From positions 1-9,684 of the forward strand of contig RFHZ01000751.1 in the NCBI GenBank assembly GCA_003696125.1: 9,684 nucleotides of DNA, written 5' to 3'. Positions 1 to 9,417 of this stretch are shown here, in pieces. Every line of letters starts with the position of its first letter. The first letter of the stretch is position 1. Below the pieces are notes generated by a model. It saw nothing but the letters and a program-made list of their open reading frames with translations. It was not told the origin of the DNA and ran no database searches. The position numbers and the translations under genes were made by a program. The stretch is from Nitrospinota bacterium (lineage in GTDB: Bacteria > Tectomicrobia > Entotheonellia > J063).

Positions 1-1575
1 CTCCTGCGGCTCCTGGAGGAAGGCCGGGTGCCAGGCCCACAGGGCACGATCCGGGTGGGGACGGGGAGAGCGGTCCTCCTCCTGTCTGTTGGGGGCTGGC
101 GACGTGAATATGACCCGTTCCGGCAGGGTCCCCATGACCCGCTGCAGTTGCAGGGAGGCCCGCTGGATGGCGTAGTCCCGGCGGATGAGCTGCTGGTGTG
201 CTTCGCTCTGCTTGATCTGGGCGGCCAGGAGGGTGAACCGTTCCTCTCCTTTCCCCCACCGGTCAACTGCCCGGGCGATACGCAGCGCTTCCCTGGCCTC
301 TTCGCTCTGCTTGACCGCTGTGACAAAGCGTTTTTGCGCTTCTTGCAGTTTTTGGTAGGCCTCCACCGCCTCCACGGCCAGTCGTGTCTGCCAGGCCGCC
401 ACCTCCATCTCGAGCTGTTTCACCAGGGCAGCCTCTCGTGCCGACCTCGCCTTTTGCAGGGGCCAGATGAGGAGAGGGGTGGAGAAGCGCAGCCCGGTAC
501 TCGATCCCATGAAAAAATCGCCCCTCCCTTCCCTGCTCGAAGCTCCATAGGTGGTGCGCAACTCTATGCGGGGGAGCCGGGTCCTGATGATCTCGTGTCC
601 GGCCTGGGCTTCGGCCAGTTGAGCCTGGGCTTCCTGGAGCTCTGGGCGTTGAGACCGGGCACGGGTGATCGCCTGCCGGACATCTTCCGGGACAGCCACC
701 ACCACCCGCTTGGGCTGGAGGGAGAGGGGAGCGTCGACCCTCCTTCCCATCAGGCCGTTTAAGGTGGTCCTGGCCACTTCGAGACTTTTCCGGGCTTCTG
801 CCAGCTTCTGCTGCGTTGCGGCCAGCCCTTGTTCGATGGCCAGGAGATCCGGGGAGAGCAGAGTGCCGTGCTGGGAGCGGAGGGAGGCCACCCGGCGCTG
901 TTCCTCTCGCACCTGGAGTTCGGCTTTCAGGACCTCTATCAGCTCTTCTGCTTCCAGGAATTGAAGATAGGAGTTCAGGGCGCTATCGAGGATGGCCATT
1001 CTCACCCGGGTATAATTGGCTACTGAGGCCAATAGGGACTCCTCTGCCTGGTGCATCCGTGCCTTTCTCCCCCAGATACCGTCCAGGATCGACTGGGTCA
1101 GGGTGGTAAAAACACCCAGGGGATGAAAGCGGGTCAGGAGAGAGAATTCAGGGCCAAAGTCTACCTGGGCCTCTCGCAGGCGGGCCCGGGCTTCTATGAT
1201 CTGGAAGATGGCCTTCCGGATCTCAGGGTTGCGTCCCAAGACGATTTGCATGATGCGCTCCGGACTGGCCGGTTGGGGGAGGAGGAGGGTGAGAGGAGGG
1301 GGAGGAGAGAGGGCCAGAGAGCCCCCCTTCTCCTGGTACACGGCCTGCAGCAGGTCTCGCGCCCGCAGGTCCTCCGGATGGGAGCGGATCACCTCCTGCA
1401 GATCAGCCGTTGCCTGCTCCAGGTCTCCCCGCACATAGGCCATCAGGGCCCGCTCAAAGGGATCGGCCGGGAGAGGGGGAGGCGCTTTGCGCACCCCTAC
1501 CGTGGCGCAGGCAGGGAGGAGTCCCAAGGCCAGCATTCCGCATAGGAATCGCAGGTGATGCGTTATGGCTACCAT
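1..1575 (-). CDS. TPR/TolC-family outer-membrane efflux lipoprotein, partial (C-terminus beyond window)
   Basis: The minus frame stays open for 525 codons from ATG 1575 to base 1, so the C-terminus is outside the window. Residues 1-23 form a signal peptide with a hydrophobic core and a lipobox-like L-P-A-C; C23 would be lipidated, and Ala at +2 fits outer-membrane sorting. Residues about 40-84 resemble a single TPR helix pair (AYVRGDLEQATADLQ). From about 105 to 490 there are two outer-membrane efflux protein (OEP/TolC) repeats: long, charged, Ala/Gln/Glu-rich helices around 120-275 and 297-482, with beta-like segments near 143-160 and 337-368. TolC-family proteins form the outer-membrane duct of tripartite exporters. 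ATG 1575 lies 4 bases after the glycosyltransferase stop, so the two are almost certainly cotranslated, and polysaccharide export is the likely role (inference). The frame continues past the normal end of the second OEP repeat into a Pro/Arg-rich linker and a Trp-rich stretch (ALWAWHPAF), hinting at an extra C-terminal domain. Confidence 0.85.
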   Translation of the reverse strand, partial: MVAITHHLRFLCGMLALGLLPACATVGVRKAPPPLPADPFERALMAYVRGDLEQATADLQEVIRSHPEDLRARDLLQAVYQEKGGSLALSPPPPLTLLLPQPASPERIMQIVLGRNPEIRKAIFQIIEARARLREAQVDFGPEFSLLTRFHPLGVFTTLTQSILDGIWGRKARMHQAEESLLASVANYTRVRMAILDSALNSYLQFLEAEELIEVLKAELQVREEQRRVASLRSQHGTLLSPDLLAIEQGLAATQQKLAEARKSLEVARTTLNGLMGRRVDAPLSLQPKRVVVAVPEDVRQAITRARSQRPELQEAQAQLAEAQAGHEIIRTRLPRIELRTTYGASSREGRGDFFMGSSTGLRFSTPLLIWPLQKARSAREAALVKQLEMEVAAWQTRLAVEAVEAYQKLQEAQKRFVTAVKQSEEAREALRIARAVDRWGKGEERFTLLAAQIKQSEAHQQLIRRDYAIQRASLQLQRVMGTLPERVIFTSPAPNRQEEDRSPRPHPDRALWAWHPAFLQEPQE

Positions 1576-1579
1576 GAAG

Positions 1580-2914
1580 CTAGTATACCTCTATCTGGTT
1601 TCGGACTTTCTCCGGGGCAAAAGGGTCACGATACGACCAGCGAAAGAAGAGTTCTTGCAAGAGGGCAGCAATCCTTATCAGCTTGAGGAATAGCATCCGG
1701 TAGAGCTCAAAAAGCGGAAGATAGAACACCAGGGAGATGTACTCCCCTTTTCGTTCTGAAATGATAAGAGCGATCAGGAATTGCAGGAGTTTTGCCGAGA
1801 GGTGCAGGAAGTAGTTTATCAGCAGGATTTTGGTGTACCAGTTCGGATAATGGAGAATGATGTCGATGAAATATACCAGCCAGACTAAGGAGAGAAATAC
1901 GGCAAAGAAAATGGTGTCTACAAAGGAGACGAGATTGCTGAGGCTAAAATGGGCCAGGAATATATTATAGGTGTCTTTATGCTTTCGCAGGCGATTCCTG
2001 ATGATATTCCTGTTCCAGCGCATACGCTGTTTTATCAGCCGTCGGAGATTGTGAGGGACATTGGTGAGACAGATGGCTGTGGGAGCAAAGGCGACCTGTT
2101 TGCGCAGCTTTCTCGTCCGGATGGTGAGGTCCGAATCGTTTCCTGGTCCGGGTTCATGACCCCCGATCCGCGCAAGGAGATCCCGCCGAAACGCCCCGAA
2201 TGCTCCTGGAACGATCGATAAGATGCCCATTGCCCCTCTAAAATATCTTCCTACCATGATGGAGATCAGGTACTCAATGGTTTGCAGTTTCGTTAAGAGG
2301 TTTACATGGGGATTCCGCACTCTTAGTGTTCCACTCACCGCCCCGATTCGTTCGTCGGCAAAGTAGGGGATGAGGTTCCGTATGGCATGGCGATCGAGGG
2401 TAGAGTCTGTGTCCATGAAGACGATAAACTCTCCTCGCGCGGCTTTTAGGCCGTGGTTCAACGCTGCGGATTTCCCCTGACGGGTCTGCAGCCGGAAAAA
2501 CCGGATGAGGCCCTGGTTGGCAAAATTTTGACAGATCTCTGGGGTCTGGTCTGTAGACCCGTCATCGACCACGATGATCTCCAGATTCGGATAGTCCTGG
2601 TGCAGCAGAGAGCGAATCGTATAGGCTATTGTTTGCTCCTCGTTCAGCGCGGGGAGGATAACGGATACCAGAGGGAAATCCGTAAGCTCTGCGTCCAGAG
2701 GCCTCCTCTCTCGTCGCAACAAAACCTGGAAGAGGACATAGAAGTCGGTAAGGAGATAGCGGGGAACTTCCAAGAAGATAAACGCCCAAAACATCCTGGC
2801 AAAACGGTCTGGCCAGAGAGGGAGTAGACGGTCTATCAGGGCTCCTCCCCTGTCCAGCAGGTCGTGGATGAACAGAAACAGCGTTTCTACAGGCATCTCC
2901 AGGATTTCGATCAC
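1580..2914 (-). CDS. Membrane glycosyltransferase family 2 (PgaC/NodC/HasA-like processive synthase)
   Basis: This 444-residue inner-membrane GT2 has one N-terminal membrane segment (about 42-66), a cytoplasmic catalytic domain (about 80-300) and several C-terminal membrane segments (about 316-352, 363-388, 391-420). Motifs are complete: VVDDGSTD at 115-122 (nucleotide binding), DTDS at 168-171 (DxD metal site), GNDSDLT at 258-264 (the G[DE]DxxLT acceptor/base motif, with Asn replacing the first acid and D260 kept) and QRMRW at 296-300 (the QxxRW motif of processive enzymes). The family polymerises UDP-sugars, often UDP-GlcNAc, while threading the chain through the membrane; the sugar here is unknown. 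The start is GTG 2914, whose GTGA overlaps the stop of the preceding gene (translational coupling); ATG at residue 7 is an alternative. The downstream TolC-type gene points to a secreted polymer. The C-terminal half is markedly AT-richer than the rest of the window. Confidence 0.9.
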   Translation of the reverse strand: MIEILEMPVETLFLFIHDLLDRGGALIDRLLPLWPDRFARMFWAFIFLEVPRYLLTDFYVLFQVLLRRERRPLDAELTDFPLVSVILPALNEEQTIAYTIRSLLHQDYPNLEIIVVDDGSTDQTPEICQNFANQGLIRFFRLQTRQGKSAALNHGLKAARGEFIVFMDTDSTLDRHAIRNLIPYFADERIGAVSGTLRVRNPHVNLLTKLQTIEYLISIMVGRYFRGAMGILSIVPGAFGAFRRDLLARIGGHEPGPGNDSDLTIRTRKLRKQVAFAPTAICLTNVPHNLRRLIKQRMRWNRNIIRNRLRKHKDTYNIFLAHFSLSNLVSFVDTIFFAVFLSLVWLVYFIDIILHYPNWYTKILLINYFLHLSAKLLQFLIALIISERKGEYISLVFYLPLFELYRMLFLKLIRIAALLQELFFRWSYRDPFAPEKVRNQIEVY

Positions 2915-4023
2915 GGTTGAGGGCGCACACAGTCTCCCCCGGCTTGCCGGGCTTCCTGCAGCCGCTGGTGGGCCAGGTCGATCAGTTGCTGGGGACTCTC
3001 CACCCCGTCGGTGAGACTCGATAGCCCCACGGAAAGGGTGATCTTGGGCTCTCGGGTATTCAAGGCCAGGACCTGCTGCCGGATACGATCTGCCGCGCTG
3101 TACGCTCCGGCCAGGGGGGTGTCTGAGAGGAGAATGATCAGTCCCCTGTCCCCGTACAGGGCCGGGATATCACTGTTGCGCAACGATTCCTTTATGAGCA
3201 GGGTTATGGCCTTGACCATGCTCGCTGCTGCCTCTTTCCCAAAGGCGGCTTCGTAGTCCTCCAGGTGGTCCGGGCTGGTGATCATCAGTGAGAGGGGATG
3301 ATCGTAGCGGCGGGCACGACGGATCTCCTGTGCAAGCTGCTCTTCAAAGAAACGGAAGGTGTAGGTGCCGAAAGTCGGATCGATGAAGATCCCTGCCATC
3401 CCTGCCTCTTCCAGGACCCCTCTCCGGGCTGCCAGCACTCCCTGGGTGGTTAGGCGATAGGTATAGAGGACCCGCACTATCGCCTTTTCCACGGCAAAGG
3501 TTTGTCCACAGGTGAGGGAGAAGCAGGAGACCACAGGCTCAGAGAAGATATGCTGGCAGGCGGCGCACAGGTAGTTTGTGCTCGGCTGCTCGTAATCGAC
3601 ACCGATATGACGCAGGGTGTGTTTGCATTTGGGGCAGGTATACCGGATCCCGTCACGAAACTCGACCTCTGGGGCCACATAGCCGCAGCGGAAATGGTGG
3701 AGCATTTCCACCATCTCGATATGGGAACTCGTGCACTGTGGGCAGACCTCACGGAAGTTGAGGGCAAAATGGGAGCAGAAGGGACAGAGGTGGATCTTGT
3801 CAAAAAAATGACGACTAAGGTAGCCCAACCCGGCCAGATAATCGAGGTGCTCCACCTCCTCCCCCGGTCTGGTTTCCAAGATGGCCTGGGCCTCCGGATA
3901 CCAGTATCCGTAGGAGGATTCGAGGTTGGGGTGGGGGGAAAGCTGGGCATGTTCTCTCTGGCTGAGTTCTCTAAGCAAGAGGATCCTTTTGTCCATTGTC
4001 AAGAACTCCACAGCAGGACTCAT
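2911..4023 (-). CDS. TackOD1 zinc-ribbon protein with degenerate GGDEF domain, probable c-di-GMP receptor
   Basis: The protein has 370 residues. Residues about 56-180 match, from memory, the TackOD1 domain (Thaumarchaeal output domain 1). They carry cysteine pairs C80/C83, C94/C97, C130/C133 and C153/C156 plus C113, C167 and C172, with landmarks DYLAGLGYL, HHFRCGY and LRHIGVDY; several zinc ions are probably bound. Residues about 215-365 have the length and pattern of a GGDEF domain (FGTYTFRFFEEQLAQEIRRA at the start, ITLSVGLSSL near the end). The signature is GDRGL (291-295) after Y290 instead of GGDEF, and the first metal-binding Asp is missing (MITSPDHLEDY), so cyclase activity is unlikely. 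RNSD (282-285) sits exactly where the RxxD inhibitory c-di-GMP site lies. There is no signal peptide or membrane segment, so it is cytoplasmic. It overlaps the glycosyltransferase by 4 bases, which suggests it controls polymer synthesis. ATG 3996 (residue 10), with GGAG 9 bases upstream, is an equally plausible start. Confidence 0.8.
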   Translation of the reverse strand: MSPAVEFLTMDKRILLLRELSQREHAQLSPHPNLESSYGYWYPEAQAILETRPGEEVEHLDYLAGLGYLSRHFFDKIHLCPFCSHFALNFREVCPQCTSSHIEMVEMLHHFRCGYVAPEVEFRDGIRYTCPKCKHTLRHIGVDYEQPSTNYLCAACQHIFSEPVVSCFSLTCGQTFAVEKAIVRVLYTYRLTTQGVLAARRGVLEEAGMAGIFIDPTFGTYTFRFFEEQLAQEIRRARRYDHPLSLMITSPDHLEDYEAAFGKEAAASMVKAITLLIKESLRNSDIPALYGDRGLIILLSDTPLAGAYSAADRIRQQVLALNTREPKITLSVGLSSLTDGVESPQQLIDLAHQRLQEARQAGGDCVRPQP

Positions 4024-4032
4024 CGATTTGAC

Positions 4033-4060
4033 AGGTCCTCCTGCCTCCCCGGGAGGACCT
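4033..4060 (-). promoter_or_regulatory. Hairpin overlapping the Shine-Dalgarno of the TackOD1-GGDEF gene
   Basis: Arms of nine perfectly paired bases (4033-4041 and 4052-4060) enclose a 10-base loop in the 48-base gap between the hisS stop and ATG 4023. On the minus-strand transcript the 3' arm contains GGAGG, part of an AGGAGG Shine-Dalgarno at 4042-4037. That lies 13 bases before ATG 4023, which is rather far. No T-run follows, so it is a poor intrinsic terminator. It could mask the ribosome site or stabilise the processed hisS 3' end. If the true start is ATG 3996, the masking role would not apply. Confidence 0.4.
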
Positions 4061-4071
4061 CTGCCTACCCG

Positions 4072-5337
4072 TTACACCAGAGCCAGTTTTTGCTGGAGGA
4101 AGGGGACTACCTGGGACAGGTCTATCCTCTCCTGGCCCTCTCCTTGCATCTCCTTGATCACGATCTTCCCGCTGGACAATTCATCCTCACCCAGAATCAG
4201 GGTGTAGCGGACTCCGAGCTTATTCGCTCTGCGCAACTGGCTCTTCAGGCTTTTGGGCTCGTACTCCATCTCGATGGCGATCCCCAGGCGTCGGAGGGTG
4301 CAGACCAGTTGAAACGCTTTCGTTTGGGCTTGCTCGCCCAGGGCAGCGAGAAAGACCATGGGTTGAGGGGAGGGGAACACCACCCCCTTCTCTTCCAGCA
4401 ACGCGATCAGTCGTTCCATACCTATAGCAAAACCGATGCCAGGAGTGGAGGGACCCCCGATGGCTTCGACCAGTCCATCGTATCTCCCTCCCCCGACAAC
4501 CGCATTCTGGGCGCCCAGGCCGGGGGCGAGAATTTCAAAGGTGGTGCGGGTATAGTAGTCGAGTCCTCGTACCAGGCGGGCATCGAGCACATAAGGAACG
4601 TCTACGGCGGTTAAAAGCTGGAGAACCGTCTCAAAGTGCTGGCGACAGGCGGGACAGAGATAGTCCTGCACGGTGGGAGCCGTGGTCAGGATCTGCTGGC
4701 ACTGGGGATTCTTACAATCCAGGATGCGCAGAGGATTCCGCTCGTACCGTCCCTGGCAGTCAGGACAGAGCCGAGAGAGGTGGGCGCCGAGGAAGCGCCT
4801 GAGTTCCTCACGGTAGAGGGGACGACACTGGGCATCCCCTAAGGTGTTGAGGTGGAGGGCTAGCTGCTCGAGGCCTAGCTCGTGCAGCAGGGTGATCAGC
4901 ATCACGATGATCTCGGCATCGATGTACGGGCTGCTGCTCCCCAGGGCTTCGGCATCGATCTGGTAAAACTGCCGGTACCGCCCGGCCTGGGGACGCTCGT
5001 AACGGAACATCGGGCCGATACAGTAGACCTTAAACACGCCGGGAGGGAAGTAGAGCTTGTGCTCGGTATAGGCCCGGGCAATGGCTGCCGTGGCTTCAGG
5101 ACGCAGGGTCAGCATCTCCCCGCCCTTATCGGCAAAGGTGTACATCTCCTTTTCCACAATATCCGTGGTTTCCCCGATGCCTCGCGTAAAGAGGGCGGTC
5201 TTTTCGAAGATCGGGGTACGGATTTCCTGATAGCCATGCGTTTCTAAGACACGACGCGCTATGCGCTCCACATAGTGCCACTTCGGCATATCCTCGGGGA
5301 GAATATCTTTCACCCCTCTTACAGCCTGAATCGCCAT
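4072..5337 (-). CDS. hisS: Histidyl-tRNA synthetase (HisRS, class II)
   Basis: This cytoplasmic enzyme charges tRNA-His with histidine using ATP. The 421 residues are the usual bacterial length. Class II motif 1 is at about 35-45 (GYQEIRTPIFE). Motif 2 is at 104-130 (GPMFRYERPQAGRYRQFYQ). The histidine-binding HisA loop LVRGLDYYTRT is at 255-265 with GGGRYDGL at 282-289, and motif 3 GIGFAIGMERL is at 300-310. The anticodon-binding domain follows from about 325 to 421. The insertion between motifs 2 and 3 has cysteines C191/C194, C208/C213 and C228/C231, a pattern seen in many bacterial HisRS and able to hold a metal. ATG 5337 is supported by GAGAGGGGA at 5354-5346, 8 bases upstream. It is the first gene of the leftward unit and its promoter may also drive the polysaccharide genes. 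No T-box leader is visible. Confidence 0.97.
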   Translation of the reverse strand: MAIQAVRGVKDILPEDMPKWHYVERIARRVLETHGYQEIRTPIFEKTALFTRGIGETTDIVEKEMYTFADKGGEMLTLRPEATAAIARAYTEHKLYFPPGVFKVYCIGPMFRYERPQAGRYRQFYQIDAEALGSSSPYIDAEIIVMLITLLHELGLEQLALHLNTLGDAQCRPLYREELRRFLGAHLSRLCPDCQGRYERNPLRILDCKNPQCQQILTTAPTVQDYLCPACRQHFETVLQLLTAVDVPYVLDARLVRGLDYYTRTTFEILAPGLGAQNAVVGGGRYDGLVEAIGGPSTPGIGFAIGMERLIALLEEKGVVFPSPQPMVFLAALGEQAQTKAFQLVCTLRRLGIAIEMEYEPKSLKSQLRRANKLGVRYTLILGEDELSSGKIVIKEMQGEGQERIDLSQVVPFLQQKLALV

Positions 5338-5576: not shown

Positions 5577-6389
5577 ATGGGATCGGTAGAGGAGAGGAGC
5601 ATTCTGGAGCAAAGGCGCAAGCGCTTCTTCCAGCAGCAGTTGATTCGCTGGTTTTCCCTCTGGGGACGAGACCTCCCCTGGCGGCGGACCCAAGACCCCT
5701 ATGCCATTCTGGTATCCGAGGTGATGCTGCAGCAGACGCAGGTGGAGCGGGTGCAGGAATACTATACCCGCTTCTTAGACACCTTCCCCACGCTACAGGC
5801 GCTGGCAGAGGCTCCCTGGGAGCAGGTCCTCGCCTGCTGGCAGGGATTGGGATACTATCAACGGGCTCGCCACCTTCACCAGGCGGCACGGGAAATTGTC
5901 GAGCGCTACGGCGGCCTGTTCCCCACCACGCTCCAGGAACTGACCCGGCTGCCTGGGGTGGGACGCTATACGGCAGGGGCTATCCTGAGCTTTGCCTTTC
6001 ACCAGGAGGTTCCCATCCTGGATACCAATGTGAAGCGCCTGCTCCAGCGTGTCTTTGTCCGCCGGGTGTCACGTCAACCGGCCCGTATGGAGAAGCGGTT
6101 GTGGCGCATGGCGCGAGCGGTTATTCTTCCCGGCAAAGCCTGGATCATCAATCAGGCCATGATGGATTTTGGGGCAACCGTCTGTACCGCCCGTAAACCC
6201 CGCTGTGCTCACTGCTGTCTGCAGACGATCTGTATCGCGTACCAGAGGACAACGACCCAGCTTCCCCTCTTCGCTGCGGAATACGAGATGGCAGAGGAAG
6301 AGGAGATCGAAGCACTGGTGGCAGAAACGCTGGAGCGGTATGGGCAGACAAAAACCTGGAACCATTCACGTGGAGGGAACGATGAGTAG
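5577..6389 (+). CDS. mutY: A/G-specific adenine DNA glycosylase, short form
   Basis: MutY removes adenine mispaired with 8-oxoguanine or G. In the 270 residues counted from ATG 5577, SEVMLQQTQV carries catalytic E48, the helix-hairpin-helix is LPGVGRYTAGAI (125-136), and D149 in LDTNVKR is the catalytic Asp. The 4Fe-4S cluster has the spacing Cx6Cx2Cx5C (C203, C210, C213, C219). After the cluster only about 50 residues remain, an acidic tail (AEEEEIEALVAETLERYG) in place of the roughly 120-residue NUDIX-like domain that recognises 8-oxoG in E. coli MutY (about 350 residues). This is a catalytic-core form. ATG 5577 is chosen because similarity starts just after it; GGAGGAAG lies 15 bases upstream and a closer AG-rich stretch at 5564-5570, so the ribosome site is unremarkable. 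It overlaps the next gene by 8 bases. The symbol rests on the catalytic core; a related HhH-GPD glycosylase with different specificity is possible. Confidence 0.88.
   Translation: MGSVEERSILEQRRKRFFQQQLIRWFSLWGRDLPWRRTQDPYAILVSEVMLQQTQVERVQEYYTRFLDTFPTLQALAEAPWEQVLACWQGLGYYQRARHLHQAAREIVERYGGLFPTTLQELTRLPGVGRYTAGAILSFAFHQEVPILDTNVKRLLQRVFVRRVSRQPARMEKRLWRMARAVILPGKAWIINQAMMDFGATVCTARKPRCAHCCLQTICIAYQRTTTQLPLFAAEYEMAEEEEIEALVAETLERYGQTKTWNHSRGGNDE
6372..6377 (+). promoter_or_regulatory. Ribosome binding site fixing the creatininase-family start
   Basis: GGAGGG inside the last codons of mutY lies 4 bases before ATG 6382. It decides this start over the longer open frame reaching upstream to 6169, whose extra codons only read the mutY 3' end in another frame. 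Confidence 0.7.
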
Positions 6390-7107
6390 GGTAGCAGAGA
6401 TGAGCTGGATCGCTTTTGAGAAGCAGACGCAACAGACCGATCTGGTCTTGCTCCCCCTGGGAGCGGTGGAGGTGTACGGACCGCATCTCCCCATGGGGAC
6501 CGATGGTTTCGTGGCCATGGCGCTTGCCACCAGGGTGGCAGAACGTATCCCTGCCCTGGTCGCTCCCCTGATTCCGGTCGGCTATTCCCGCTCCTTGCAG
6601 GACTTTCCGGGAACGCTGAACGTCTCCCCGGAAGCACTGAAAGCTTACGTGCAGGGGATCTGCGAGAGCTTCCTGCTGTGGGGATGCCGTCGCTTCCTCT
6701 TCCTCAACGGTCACCTGGGCAATGTCGCCCCGATCGCCCAACTGTGTGAGGAGCTCCGGCGGGTGCATGGGGCTACCTGTGCCCAGGTGGATATCTGGCG
6801 TTTCATCCAGCCGCTCACCCGGGATCTGATGGAGAGCGACACCCTGCCCTTTGGACATGCCAGCGAGGCGGGAACGAGTGTCATGCTCTATCTCCACCCG
6901 GAACTGGTCGATCTCCCTGCCGCCACCCGCACCCCGCCTCCGCCAGACCCGTTCCCAGACATCTTGCAGACGGGGAGTTACCGGGAGAAGAGTGGTACCG
7001 GTGTGCTGGGAGATGCCACCAGAGGAACGGCGGAGAAAGGGGAGGCGATTATCTCCCGCTCGGTAGACCGCCTGGTCGCGTTTGTTGAGAGCGAGGCGTT
7101 CCGTTAA
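6382..7107 (+). CDS. Creatininase-family amidohydrolase
   Basis: The 241 residues match the creatinine amidohydrolase family in length and motif order. GAVEVYGPHLPMGTD (28-41 region) corresponds to the GSxEQHGPHLPLGTD metal motif. NGHLGN (109-114) corresponds to NGHGGN, and GHASEAGTSVML (158-169) to GHAGExETS. GVLGDATRGTAEKGE (207-221) corresponds to the conserved GxxGDPxxATAEKGE. Probable metal ligands are E30, D41, H111 and E162. At the place of the usual metal-binding His of EQHG there is Y32, a substitution that may mark a subgroup. Members hydrolyse small cyclic amides or formamides (creatinine, FAPy compounds) or process peptides (MftE), so the substrate is unknown. It is cytoplasmic, with no signal peptide. 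The 8-base overlap with mutY means cotranslation; no pathway link to MutY is evident. Confidence 0.88.
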   Translation: MSRVAEMSWIAFEKQTQQTDLVLLPLGAVEVYGPHLPMGTDGFVAMALATRVAERIPALVAPLIPVGYSRSLQDFPGTLNVSPEALKAYVQGICESFLLWGCRRFLFLNGHLGNVAPIAQLCEELRRVHGATCAQVDIWRFIQPLTRDLMESDTLPFGHASEAGTSVMLYLHPELVDLPAATRTPPPPDPFPDILQTGSYREKSGTGVLGDATRGTAEKGEAIISRSVDRLVAFVESEAFR

Positions 7108-7181
7108 TCATTAAGTAGCTATTTTTGACCCTTTTGCACTTTGCTGCCTCTTGTGGCTACGCGTGACCAGGAAGACTTTCT

Positions 7182-7249
7182 ACCGCCGAGCCCGCAGAGA
7201 CCGCCGAGATGAACAGGCAAAAACCTGCATATTCGGCGTCCTTGGCGGT
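7182..7249. repeat. Nested palindromic element built from 9-base units
   Basis: Three direct 9-base units (7182-7190 ACCGCCGAG, 7191-7199 CCCGCAGAG, 7200-7208 ACCGCCGAG) are followed after 23 bases by two units in inverted orientation (7232-7249, reading ACCGCCAAG then GACGCCGAA on the minus strand). A small CAGG/CCTG hairpin (7214-7217 with 7224-7227) sits in the centre. CGCCGA/TCGGCG (7202-7207 with 7233-7238) and ACCGCC/GGCGGT (7182-7187 with 7244-7249) pair outside it. Tracts of this RCCGCnGAG type are dispersed non-coding repeats in many environmental bacterial genomes, from general knowledge. It occupies most of the complex part of the 232-base spacer 7108-7339. The rest of that spacer is AT-richer and shows no clear promoter or terminator. 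Confidence 0.65.
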
Positions 7250-7325
7250 GTAAACCGGCAGAGCGCTGGGTTCGTGGGGCAAAAACGTGTTCAAGCTGTT
7301 AGTCATACTTAAAAATTGCATGTGC

Positions 7326-7334
7326 AGGGAGGAG
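7326..7334 (+). promoter_or_regulatory. Ribosome binding site fixing the MaoC start
   Basis: AGGGAGGAG ends 5 bases before ATG 7340, an excellent Shine-Dalgarno. It selects this ATG over the in-frame TTG at 7316, which would place the same sequence inside the coding region. Confidence 0.75.
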
Positions 7335-7339
7335 ACGAC

Positions 7340-7795
7340 ATGGTGAAGTACTACGAAGATCTGGAGACCGGGGTCGAGTTTCGTTCCCCGGGACGGACCA
7401 TTACCGAAACCGATGTGATCATGTTTGCCAGCCTCTCCGGGGATTGGGACGTGATCCATACCGACGAGGAGTACTCCAAAAAACACTCCATCTTCGGCAC
7501 ACGGGTGGCGCATGGCCTCCTCGGCCTGGCCATCGTCGAAGGGTTAAAGAAGCGGATACCGTACTTCGCCGATGTGGATAACATCGCTTCCCTGGGCTGG
7601 ACCTGGAATTTTACCGGTCCCCTCTTCATCGGGGATACCATCTCTCTCAAGGTCTCCATCGCCCGCAAACGGGAGACCAAAAAACCGGACCGGGGGATCG
7701 TGTACGAGGCGGTTTCCATCGTTAACCAGCGGGATGAGGTGATCCAGCAGGGAGAGCATATCCTCATGGTGAAGCGACGCCCGACGAACACCTAG
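7340..7795 (+). CDS. MaoC-like (R)-specific enoyl-CoA hydratase/dehydratase
   Basis: The 151 residues form a single hot-dog domain, as in PhaJ/MaoC hydratases that add water to trans-2-enoyl-CoA. The signature SGDWDVIHTDEEY (33-45) matches the hydratase motif SGDxNPxHxD, with catalytic D35 and H40 at the correct 5-residue spacing; Asp replaces the usual Asn at 37 and Val replaces Pro at 38. GTRVAHGLLGLAIVEGL (53-69) is the conserved VAHGxL helix, and FTGPLFIGDTISLKVSI (91-107) the family's P-x-x-x-GDT strand. It is cytoplasmic. It is the first gene of a three-gene operon, ending 8 bases before the CoA-transferase A subunit, so the substrate is probably a CoA thioester handled by those partners. 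Nothing shows chain length or ring structure. Confidence 0.88.
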   Translation: MVKYYEDLETGVEFRSPGRTITETDVIMFASLSGDWDVIHTDEEYSKKHSIFGTRVAHGLLGLAIVEGLKKRIPYFADVDNIASLGWTWNFTGPLFIGDTISLKVSIARKRETKKPDRGIVYEAVSIVNQRDEVIQQGEHILMVKRRPTNT

Positions 7796-7803
7796 CAGGG
7801 GAG

Positions 7804-8673
7804 ATGAGGACAGTGATGAGGGAAAAATTATGTGCCCTCCAGGATCTTCGGAAATGGGTCTGGTCAGGGATGTTCCTGGCCGTGGGAGGAGGACCGCTGC
7901 GCATTACCCCTATGGCCCTGCTCCGCGAGGTCTTGCGAAGCGGGGTGCGCGATCTGGATCTCCTGGTGACCCCGACCGGAGGCCTGGGGGTCGATATGCT
8001 GATCGGTGCCGGAGTGGCCCGCTCCGTGGAGTTTGCCCAGATTGTGCTGGATGAGTTTGGTATGGCCCCCCATTTTCGCCGGCAGGCCGAAGCAGGACGG
8101 TTGCGCTGTAAGGATCACACCTGTCCCGCCCTCCTTTCCGGGCTCCAGGCGGCGGCCATGGGGATCCCCTTTATCCCGGTACGGGGGCTTATCGGTTCCG
8201 ATTATCTGCGGGTGCGCCCGGAGTTTAAGGTGGTGCAGGACCCCTATTCCGGAGAGGAGATCGTGGTGGTACCCCCTCTGGCACCCGACCTGGCCCTGAT
8301 CCATGCGATCAAAGGGGACCGGTACGGGAACCTCTTGCTCGAGCGCACCGAGGATGATCAGCTGCTGATCAGGGCGGCGAAACGGGTTGTGGCCTCGGTG
8401 GAGGAGCTGGTGGAACCAGAGGAACTCAGGCGAAGTCCCGAAGGGGTATGGGTGCCTTCGCTCTATGTGGATGCGATCATCCCCCTCCCATACGGGGCCC
8501 ATCCGACTGATTGCCGCGGGTACTATCCGATCGACGAGGACCATATCCGGGAGTATCTGGAAGCATCCCAAAGCCCGGAGGCTTTCCAGGAGTACCTGGA
8601 GAGATACGTGTACCGGGCTGCGGATCACGAGACCTATCTCGAAGTCATCGGGAGCAAAGCCACACCGGCTTAA
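7804..8673 (+). CDS. Family I CoA-transferase subunit A (GctA/IpdA-like)
   Basis: The 289 residues match the alpha subunit of glutaconate CoA-transferase-type enzymes. The VGGGPLRITP loop (27-36) stands for the glycine-rich GGFGxxRxP loop. LRSGVRDLDLLVTPTGGLGVDMLIGAG (44-70), SGLQAAAMGIPFIPVRGLIGSD (112-133) and APDLALIHAIKGDRYGN (160-176) are the other family landmarks. In this family the active-site glutamate sits in the partner B subunit, so A mainly shapes the CoA and acid pocket. ATG 7804 has AGGGGAG almost touching it; ATG 7816 (residue 5), with GAGGA 5 bases upstream, is a better-spaced alternative. The stop is 9 bases before subunit B, so the two are surely coexpressed and form a complex. 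Distinguishing transferase from IpdA-like hydrolase is not possible from this chain alone. Confidence 0.87.
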   Translation: MRTVMREKLCALQDLRKWVWSGMFLAVGGGPLRITPMALLREVLRSGVRDLDLLVTPTGGLGVDMLIGAGVARSVEFAQIVLDEFGMAPHFRRQAEAGRLRCKDHTCPALLSGLQAAAMGIPFIPVRGLIGSDYLRVRPEFKVVQDPYSGEEIVVVPPLAPDLALIHAIKGDRYGNLLLERTEDDQLLIRAAKRVVASVEELVEPEELRRSPEGVWVPSLYVDAIIPLPYGAHPTDCRGYYPIDEDHIREYLEASQSPEAFQEYLERYVYRAADHETYLEVIGSKATPA

Positions 8674-8682
8674 GGAGGACAG

Positions 8683-9417
8683 ATGCGGTATACACCAGCC
8701 GAGTTCATGGCTACGGTGATTGCACGAGAGATCGGGGATGGAGAGATGGTGGCGGTAGGGACCCTCTCCCCTCTGCCGGCCATGGGGGCGTTCCTGGCCC
8801 GGGAGACCCACGCTCCCCGGGCCACCATCATCATCCTGGGCAGTGATGACTGGTTTCCCCTCACGGGCGGGAGCAAGGAGTTTCACGACCTGGGGCAACG
8901 TGGGAGATTCGATCTTTTTTTCCTCAGCGGTGCCCAGATCGATCAGCACGGGAACATCAATCTGACCGTGATCGGGACCCACCAGCAGCCCCGTGTCCGG
9001 CTCCCGGGAGGGGCCGGTTCCGCCGTGCTCTATTTTATGGCCCGGCGGATCATCCTCTTCCGGCCTGAGCACACCCGCCGGACCTTTGTCCCCCGGGTCG
9101 ATTTCATCACCAGTCCCGGCTCCAGTCCCCCTCGCATCTTCCGGCCAGGGGGACCGTCCAAGGTGATCACCCCGCTGGCCACCCTGCGCTTTAACCAGGA
9201 GAAGAGGCGCCTGGAGCTGGCTACGCTTCATCCCGGGGTGACCCTGGAGGAGGTGGAGGCCAATACCGGTTTTCCCCTGTACCCCCCTTCTCCTGTTCCG
9301 ACCACGCCCCCTCCGACTCCCGAGGAGTTGCACGTGCTCCGTACCCGGGTACGGGCCGAGATGGAGCGCGTGTACCCGGCCTTTGCCCGTACCGCCTTTC
9401 TCTCCGCCACCGGATAG
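8683..9417 (+). CDS. Family I CoA-transferase subunit B (GctB/IpdB-like), catalytic Glu apparently missing
   Basis: The 244 residues align by memory with glutaconate CoA-transferase beta. VAVGTLSPLPAMGAFLARETHAP (23-45) is the N-terminal landmark. LSGAQIDQHGNINLTVIG (81-98) is the highly conserved GAxQIDxxGNxN segment, followed by RLPGGAGSA (106-114), VDFITSPG (139-146) and a C-terminal NTGF (194-197) common to the GctB/IpdB group. In GctB the catalytic Glu lies in a HIIVESG strand; here the matching strand reads TIIILGSDD (48-56), with Leu or Gly there. A Pro-rich stretch (about 198-212) precedes a last helix. A strong AAGGAGG at 8672-8678, overlapping the subunit A stop, drives translation. 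Together with A and MaoC it may act on a CoA thioester as a transferase or, as in IpdAB of steroid degradation, as a hydrolase. Confidence 0.87.
   Translation: MRYTPAEFMATVIAREIGDGEMVAVGTLSPLPAMGAFLARETHAPRATIIILGSDDWFPLTGGSKEFHDLGQRGRFDLFFLSGAQIDQHGNINLTVIGTHQQPRVRLPGGAGSAVLYFMARRIILFRPEHTRRTFVPRVDFITSPGSSPPRIFRPGGPSKVITPLATLRFNQEKRRLELATLHPGVTLEEVEANTGFPLYPPSPVPTTPPPTPEELHVLRTRVRAEMERVYPAFARTAFLSATG

What the first reader, a model, noticed from the sequence alone, without database searches (positions are those of the whole stretch)
1..4023. Compact candidate exopolysaccharide system: TackOD1-degenerate GGDEF receptor, GT2 synthase and TPR/TolC lipoprotein
Three cotranslated genes (4-base overlap, then 4-base gap) combine a putative c-di-GMP sensor, a processive GT2 and an outer-membrane duct with a TPR. 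The logic resembles Pel (PelD degenerate GGDEF receptor, TPR plus outer-membrane pore), but the parts come from other families: a zinc-ribbon sensor instead of PelD, a PgaC/NodC-like synthase instead of PelF, and a TolC-type lipoprotein instead of a PelB barrel. I do not know a described system with this composition.
Basis: partly seen in the sequence, partly recalled or inferred. Interest (0 to 1): 0.7.

Follow-up and report, generated by a model that had tools for sequence, protein, structure and literature searches.

The report
Mxd-like polysaccharide machine with glycosidase-tailed duct
These genes most likely build a surface sugar polymer: a synthase switched on by the bacterial "stick-down" signal c-di-GMP makes the chain and pushes it out through a duct that carries its own sugar-cutting enzyme. 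It is an elaborated, very widespread version of a poorly understood biofilm machine (Mxd) known from Shewanella.

Summary
The three genes are real, on the - strand, with a 4-base overlap and then a 4-base gap: TackOD1 + degenerate GGDEF, processive GT2, and a TolC-type lipoprotein. The TPR is only a marginal single repeat. The TolC ORF runs off the window; its continuation on contig C949 fuses it in frame to a TIM-barrel glycosidase-like domain and a beta-propeller. A HlyD membrane-fusion gene follows. The module recurs: TackOD1 gene next to the same GT2 subfamily in 16 genome loci (at least six phyla) and all 10 plasmid loci inspected (Pseudomonadota), nearly always with HlyD. TolC is fused to the glycosidase in about 10 genomes. 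In the GGDEF half, the c-di-GMP inhibitory-site residues (RxxD, Arg+31) are invariant in the 16-protein alignment while catalytic GG[DE]EF is lost in every copy. Best explanation: a c-di-GMP-gated synthase-dependent exopolysaccharide machine with HlyD-TolC export. It is not undescribed in kind: receptor-GT2-HlyD order and part descriptions match Shewanella mxdABC, although I could not align to the Shewanella sequences. New: the TackOD1 link, the breadth, and the glycosidase-tailed TolC. Verdict: new variant of a known kind; interest 0.55.

The parts
2911..4023 (-). TackOD1-GGDEF protein (370 aa): predicted c-di-GMP receptor of the module (MxdA-like)
   Evidence: Pfam TackOD1 2.2e-50 and GGDEF 5.9e-21; AlphaFold2 model mean pLDDT 88.9, GGDEF fold by Foldseek
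3451..3993 (-). TackOD1 zinc-ribbon domain, 11 of the protein's 12 cysteines
   Evidence: PF18551 E=7.6e-51 at exactly these bases; cysteines conserved in alignment A1; cysteine positions
2935..3354 (-). Degenerate GGDEF domain
   Evidence: PF00990 residues 224-363; NCBIfam GGDEF 2.6e-21
3169..3180 (-). I-site RxxD (RNSD, residues 282-285)
   Evidence: R282 and D285 invariant in all 16 rows of A1; aligns to the RKSD I-site of DgcR, which is mutated in the I-site mutant 6zxb
3085..3087 (-). I-site third residue Arg313 (RxxD Arg + 31)
   Evidence: invariant in A1; a third I-site arginine is required in PelD (PMC8461298, PMC7112168)
3139..3153 (-). Position of the GGDEF active-site motif, here GDRGL (lost)
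   Evidence: lost in every family member
1580..2914 (-). Membrane GT2 synthase (444 aa), PgaC/NodC-like, MxdB-like
   Evidence: Glycos_transf_2 2.3e-41; best NCBIfam PgaC_IcaA 181 bits, below its cut-off of 422; invariant D118, D168/D170, D260/D262, Q296-R-x-R-W300 in A3; C-terminal TM segments
1..1575 (-). TolC-type outer-membrane lipoprotein, 5' part of a gene that continues on contig C949 as TolC-glycosidase-propeller fusion (about 1150 aa)
   Evidence: OEP 7.7e-36, OprN 4.7e-7; in-frame continuation; same fusion in G067 (828 aa), G162, G472, G449, G334, G349
1507..1521 (-). Lipobox LLPAC (Cys23)
   Evidence: direct reading
1354..1479 (-). Single TPR-like stretch (residues 33-74), marginal
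   Evidence: TPR_9 18.3 bits against cut-off 35
1..57 (-). Overlap with contig C949 (L033), start of the glycosidase-like domain; L033:1951-3141 beyond it is the HlyD-type membrane-fusion protein
   Evidence: 57-base match, 1 mismatch; glycosidase-like domain aa 519-725 of the joined ORF; HlyD_3 1.1e-18

Best explanation
A c-di-GMP-gated, synthase-dependent exopolysaccharide machine of the Mxd type. (1) Cytosolic c-di-GMP binds the intact I-site (R282xxD285, R313) of a GGDEF domain that can no longer make c-di-GMP. (2) This changes the TackOD1 zinc-ribbon part, the only part of the receptor kept in every lineage, which acts on the adjacent GT2. (3) The GT2 polymerises an activated sugar, probably an N-acetylhexosamine and in some lineages a uronate, and extrudes the chain through its own membrane helices. 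(4) A HlyD-type adaptor bridges the periplasm to a TolC-type trimeric duct. (5) A glycosidase-like TIM barrel on the periplasmic C-terminus of TolC trims, edits or releases the chain, as PgaB and PelA do in PNAG and Pel export. Shown here: gene content, order, recurrence, co-inheritance, conserved motifs, domain folds by prediction. Inferred: c-di-GMP binding, direction of regulation, polymer identity, export path, glycosidase activity.
For: TackOD1 gene adjacent to the same GT2 subfamily in 16 loci of 15 genomes, with HlyD in 15 of them, and in 10 of 10 plasmid loci inspected. In 385 diverse genomes the eight GT2-subfamily hits above 490 bits (next best 277) all lie in genomes with TackOD1 (11 of 385), P about 1e-14, with the caveat that the models include those genomes. 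Pairwise distances of the four proteins correlate, r = 0.83-0.98. In the GGDEF half of A1 the invariant residues are R239, R282, D285, T302 and R313, i.e. the I-site triad plus two; GG[DE]EF is lost in all copies. GT2 catalytic residues are invariant. TolC-glycosidase fusion in about ten genomes, split genes in Methylocystis. Glycosidase model pLDDT 91, pTM 0.87; top Foldseek hit PgaB, then GH18 chitinases. No other transporter in the modules. A canonical GGEEF cyclase exists in the same genome. Mxd literature: MxdA degenerated GGDEF and c-di-GMP-binding, MxdB GT2, MxdC efflux-pump homologue, operon needed for 3D biofilm.
Against: No experiment on any TackOD1 member was found under that name. 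The I-site is lost in the alphaproteobacterial copies and the GGDEF half is absent in G476, so c-di-GMP is not the universal input. G017 and G367 have a short HlyD without hairpin and no TolC or glycosidase nearby. The glycosidase family is not resolved: VIA-align gives Z 16-20 to many TIM-barrel families. The GT2 is far below every NCBIfam equivalog cut-off, so the polymer is unknown. The C949 join rests on a 57-base overlap with one mismatch, supported by the homologous fusion in G067.
Confidence: 0.75

Rival explanations
1. The HlyD and TolC parts form a drug or small-molecule efflux system and the GT2/receptor pair merely sits beside it (for instance making a glycolipid or modifying the envelope).
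For: HlyD scores best against EmrA/EmrK and RND adaptor models and TolC against OprN/MtrE.
Against: No MFS, ABC or RND pump in the module in the loci inspected; the only inner-membrane protein is the GT2. HlyD and TolC-glycosidase distances track those of receptor and GT2, r 0.83-0.98. A glycosidase fused to TolC makes little sense for drug efflux.
Confidence: 0.08
2. The TackOD1-GGDEF protein is an active diguanylate cyclase that feeds c-di-GMP to distant effectors rather than a receptor.
For: GGDEF fold and clear family score; NCBI annotates gammaproteobacterial members as diguanylate cyclase.
Against: GG[DE]EF lost in every copy while the I-site triad is invariant in A1; MxdA, the probable counterpart, is reported as a c-di-GMP-binding effector.
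Confidence: 0.05
3. Same machine, but the main switch is TackOD1 itself (zinc or redox sensing, or a REC-type input), and the GGDEF remnant is a structural or dimerising domain with c-di-GMP secondary.
For: TackOD1 is the constant part; the GGDEF half is missing in G476 and lacks the I-site in alphaproteobacteria, where REC domains are fused (Roseibium, Palleronia) beside Hpt and histidine-kinase genes. Eleven conserved cysteines; function called obscure in PMC5847659.
Against: I-site triad invariant in all 16 GGDEF-bearing rows of A1 at 23-36 percent identity.
Confidence: 0.2

Closest known systems
Mxd machinery of Shewanella oneidensis (mxdABCD)
   Same: Order receptor, GT2, HlyD/efflux-like protein; MxdA described as degenerated GGDEF and as c-di-GMP-binding effector; MxdB membrane GT2; MxdC efflux-pump homologue; needed for 3D biofilm (PMC3691769, PMC3409153, PMC7666153). 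Plesiomonas and Photobacterium loci with this order match the family models.
   Different: The window genome adds a TolC fused to a glycosidase-like barrel and a propeller; MxdD (no known homology in the 2013 paper) was not compared. No direct alignment to S. oneidensis proteins was possible here.
Pel (PelD receptor, PelA/PelB)
   Same: Degenerate GGDEF with RxxD plus third Arg as c-di-GMP receptor; hydrolase and outer-membrane pore serve export.
   Different: No PelF (GT4-type), PelG, PelE, PelB barrel or GAF domain; receptor carries TackOD1 instead.
PNAG (PgaABCD)
   Same: GT2 nearest to PgaC/IcaA in NCBIfam; glycosidase-like domain nearest in Foldseek to PgaB.
   Different: GT2 far below the PgaC cut-off; no PgaD, no PgaA barrel, no deacetylase domain found in the module.
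Cyanobacterial XcsAB-TolC cellulose model
   Same: Synthase plus HlyD-like adaptor plus TolC proposed as a tripartite exporter, with an endoglucanase (PMC12430437).
   Different: XcsA is a PilZ-bearing cellulose synthase; this GT2 has no PilZ and scores 44 bits against a CelA cut-off of 699. Xcs and TolC genes are not in one operon; here they are.
BcsE
   Same: Degenerate GGDEF with working I-site controlling a GT2 synthase (PMC8461298).
   Different: No TackOD1; accessory regulator of Bcs.
TackOD1 proteins of archaea (REC-TackOD1)
   Same: Same zinc-ribbon output domain (PF18551).
   Different: Five haloarchaeal plasmid copies have no GT2 neighbour.

Membership tests
Mxd-type system | Operon order: degenerate-GGDEF c-di-GMP effector, membrane GT2, HlyD/efflux-like protein | tested here: met
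   Window plus C949 and 25 further loci have receptor next to GT2, HlyD adjoining in nearly all; features compared with descriptions in PMC3691769, PMC3409153, PMC7666153. In the window genome TolC lies between GT2 and HlyD.
Mxd-type system | Sequence homology to S. oneidensis MxdA/B/C (SO4180 and neighbours) | not testable with these tools
Mxd-type system | MxdD | not tested
Pel system | c-di-GMP receptor with degenerate GGDEF, RxxD and third Arg | tested here: met
   R282, D285, R313 invariant; GGDEF lost
Pel system | PelF-type glycosyltransferase (family 4), PelG, PelE, PelB | tested here: not met
   Synthase is GT2; no such genes in the module
PNAG (Pga/Ica) | PgaC/IcaA equivalog | tested here: not met
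   181 bits against cut-off 422
PNAG (Pga/Ica) | PgaB deacetylase and PgaA barrel-TPR porin in the operon | tested here: not met
   Module holds TolC-type OEP with glycosidase-like barrel, no deacetylase hit in Pfam
Cellulose synthase (Bcs/Xcs) | CelA/BcsA equivalog with PilZ | tested here: not met
   44 bits against cut-off 699; no PilZ
Active diguanylate cyclase | GG[DE]EF motif | tested here: not met
   GDRGL in the window; lost in all members
TackOD1 (PF18551) | Score over the curated cut-off with conserved cysteines | tested here: met
   171 bits against 32; cysteines conserved in A1
TolC/OEP family | OEP domains over the cut-off | tested here: met
   124 bits against 22, two stretches
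GH18 or GH153 glycosidase | Family assignment of the TIM barrel fused to TolC | tested here: inconclusive
   Pfam GH18 below cut-off; Foldseek top PgaB then GH18, VIA-align ties many GH families; LDxE and MxY invariant in A2
Drug-efflux tripartite pump | RND, ABC or MFS pump in the operon | tested here: not met
   None in the modules inspected; in Methylocystis a separate MFS-OMP-HlyD operon lies on the other strand

The most novel reading that the evidence does not exclude
TackOD1, a zinc-ribbon 'output domain' of unknown function, is a general on-switch for one clade of processive GT2 synthases: inputs swap between lineages (c-di-GMP I-site, REC phosphorelay, none) while TackOD1-GT2-HlyD stays. 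In many phyla this clade exports its polymer through a TolC duct that carries its own glycosidase, an architecture for which I found no description.
Probability: 0.45. Interest if true: 0.7.

Novelty: new variant of a known kind. Interest (0 to 1): 0.55.

Why it matters
Mxd is required for Shewanella biofilm structure, yet in the papers read here its polymer is uncharacterised and MxdD has no known homology; no outer-membrane exit is named. If the module here is the same machine, it supplies candidates for the missing pieces (TolC duct, glycosidase), assigns a job to the orphan TackOD1 domain, and shows the machine in at least six phyla plus many Pseudomonadota. It also gives a directly testable case of a GT2 synthase exporting through HlyD-TolC, an idea proposed for cyanobacterial cellulose but unproven.

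Tried and rejected
Pel, PNAG and cellulose membership: each fails a tested defining feature. Drug efflux: no pump in the module. Inverted repeat before the receptor gene: folding z only -1.84. TackOD1-GT2 link in archaea: 0 of 5 haloarchaeal loci. TolC-glycosidase fusion in plasmids: none. Mxd primary papers (Thormann 2006, Rakshe 2011) are not held, so the Mxd comparison rests on later papers. Exact glycosidase family could not be settled; a family not listed there is not excluded.
Full report
What is in the window. The window is the whole of contig C137 of a 4.18 Mb, 990-contig draft genome. On the - strand lie hisS (5337-4072), then after 48 bases a 370-aa protein (4023-2911), a 444-aa protein (2914-1580; GTGA overlap) and an ORF from 1575 that runs off the left end (4-base gap). 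Pfam gives TackOD1 + GGDEF, Glycos_transf_2, and OEP (TolC) far over their cut-offs. A TPR is only a sub-threshold single stretch.

What lies beyond the edge. The first 57 bases of the window match the start of contig C949 with one mismatch. Joined, the TolC ORF continues in frame to about 1150 aa: TolC, a glycosidase-like domain, and a PD40/TolB-like propeller. Twelve bases later begins a 396-aa HlyD-type membrane-fusion protein (HlyD_3 1.1e-18). The join is supported by genome G067, where one 828-aa ORF holds the same TolC-glycosidase fusion.

Recurrence. PF18551 is rare: over cut-off in 8 of 193 and 11 of 385 sampled genomes. I fetched the neighbourhoods and scanned them with profiles grown from the window proteins. 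The TackOD1 gene adjoins the GT2 in 16 loci of 15 genomes; HlyD adjoins in 15 of the 16 (the exception, G100, sits at a contig end). A TolC-type ORF fused to the glycosidase-like domain is present in G000, G067, G162, G116, G291, G283, G334, G349, G472 and G449, with the OEP domain confirmed by Pfam in eight of them. The genomes come from at least six phyla, since searches confined to the phyla of G067, G162, G116, G017, G100 and G000 returned separate sets. TackOD1 proteins of G138, G132 and G407 stand alone. On named plasmids, all ten loci inspected (Plesiomonas, Aeromonas, Photobacterium, Methylocystis, Aminobacter, Roseibium, Rhodobacteraceae M382, Alisedimentitalea, Phyllobacterium, Palleronia) have receptor then GT2, and HlyD next wherever the record continues. 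In Methylocystis a separate glycosidase-like gene and a TolC gene follow HlyD, the split form of the fusion. Five haloarchaeal TackOD1 genes have no GT2 neighbour, so the link is not a general property of TackOD1.

Co-inheritance. Pairwise distances among the four proteins correlate at r = 0.83-0.98 (Mantel, no permutation of 2000 reaching the value). In 385 genomes the GT2-subfamily model gives eight hits above 490 bits and then falls to 277; all eight are in genomes with TackOD1 (hypergeometric about 1e-14). The model was built partly from those genomes, so this is support, not an independent test.

The receptor. In alignment A1 (16 proteins, 23-36 percent identity to the window) the invariant residues of the GGDEF half are R239, R282, D285, T302 and R313. 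R282xxD285 aligns to the I-site of DgcR, which is mutated in the 6zxb structure, and R313 lies 31 residues on; RxxD and a further Arg are required in PelD (PMC8461298, PMC7112168). GG[DE]EF is lost in every copy. The model is confident (pLDDT 88.9) and the C-terminal half is a GGDEF fold. A canonical GGEEF cyclase is present elsewhere in the genome. Exceptions inform: alphaproteobacterial copies keep TackOD1 but lack the I-site, and two carry an N-terminal REC domain beside Hpt and kinase genes; G476 has TackOD1 with no GGDEF. TackOD1 is therefore the constant part and probably the one that acts on the synthase; this is inference.

The synthase. Invariant in A3 are D118, D168 and D170, D260 and D262, and Q296-R-x-R-W300, the pattern of processive GT2 synthases. 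The closest NCBIfam model is PgaC/IcaA at 181 bits, far below its cut-off of 422; NodC and CelA are lower. There is no PilZ. A UDP-glucose/GDP-mannose dehydrogenase-family gene adjoins in G367 and G346 (Pfam), with a similar gene in G017 and near G116 judged by sequence only, and GalE-type epimerases in two Rhodobacterales, which suggests uronate or epimerised sugars in some lineages.

The duct and its glycosidase. TolC termini face the periplasm (general knowledge), so a C-terminal barrel would sit beside the periplasmic end of the duct. The barrel model is confident (pLDDT 91, pTM 0.87). Sequence search finds one solved relative, 10yv, labelled a putative GH from Cellulomonas fimi. Foldseek ranks PgaB first, then GH18 chitinases; VIA-align gives Z 16-20 to several TIM-barrel families. 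L-D-x-E and M-x-Y are invariant in A2, at strand ends 4 and 6, as in GH18 (the GH18 comparison is from general knowledge). I call it glycosidase-like and leave the family open.

What it is. The most economical reading is a c-di-GMP-gated polysaccharide synthase that exports through HlyD and TolC with on-site trimming. Functionally it resembles Pel (receptor) and PNAG (synthase, PgaB-like barrel) but fails membership tests for both and for cellulose. The published descriptions that fit are those of Shewanella mxdABCD: MxdA, a degenerated-GGDEF protein (PMC3409153) that binds c-di-GMP and is thought to activate the machinery (PMC7666153, PMC11395469); MxdB, a membrane GT2; MxdC, an efflux-pump homologue; MxdD without known homology; mutants fail to build three-dimensional biofilm (PMC3691769). 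Gammaproteobacterial loci found here have that order. I could not obtain the Shewanella sequences, so identity with Mxd is a strong inference, not a test.

Novelty. The literature searches found no paper linking TackOD1 to polysaccharide synthesis (one paper in the library names the domain, calling its function obscure), none joining HlyD, TolC, c-di-GMP and GT2, and none with a TolC-glycosidase combination in this context; the library holds open-licence papers only. I rate it a new variant of a known kind.

Noticed in passing
L101 and L104 (Roseibium, Palleronia plasmids): TackOD1 receptors here carry an N-terminal REC domain, lack the I-site, and sit beside Hpt and histidine-kinase genes: an apparent swap of input from c-di-GMP to phosphorelay.
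   Followed up: partly
L069:2277-2933 (G476): A TackOD1 protein with no GGDEF half, between HlyD and the GT2.
   Followed up: partly
L064 and L065 (G367), L034 (G017): Short HlyD-like proteins without the helical hairpin and no TolC nearby; G367 holds two copies of the receptor-GT2-HlyD module on separate contigs.
   Followed up: no
L047:9042-9995 and its upstream part (G116): The family search reports one in-frame TAA inside TackOD1 and one TAG in the GT2 hit of this genome, and the TolC part is split into two ORFs: possible decay of the module.
   Followed up: no
L067 (G472) 1845-4397 and 13105-15270: Two canonical GGDEF plus HD-GYP proteins flank the module, a possible local c-di-GMP source and sink.
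   Followed up: partly
window 4024-4071: A 9-base inverted repeat (AGGTCCTCC / GGAGGACCT) between hisS and the receptor gene, one arm overlapping the likely ribosome-binding site; folding z only -1.84.
   Followed up: partly
L106-L110 (haloarchaeal plasmids): Stand-alone TackOD1 proteins of about 320 aa in Haloterrigena, Haladaptatus, Natronococcus and Halomicrococcus, with no shared neighbour.
   Followed up: partly
window 5580-9417 (+): Ordinary neighbours: MutY-like HhH-GPD glycosylase, creatininase-family hydrolase, MaoC-like dehydratase and a pair of CoA-transferase subunits.
   Followed up: no
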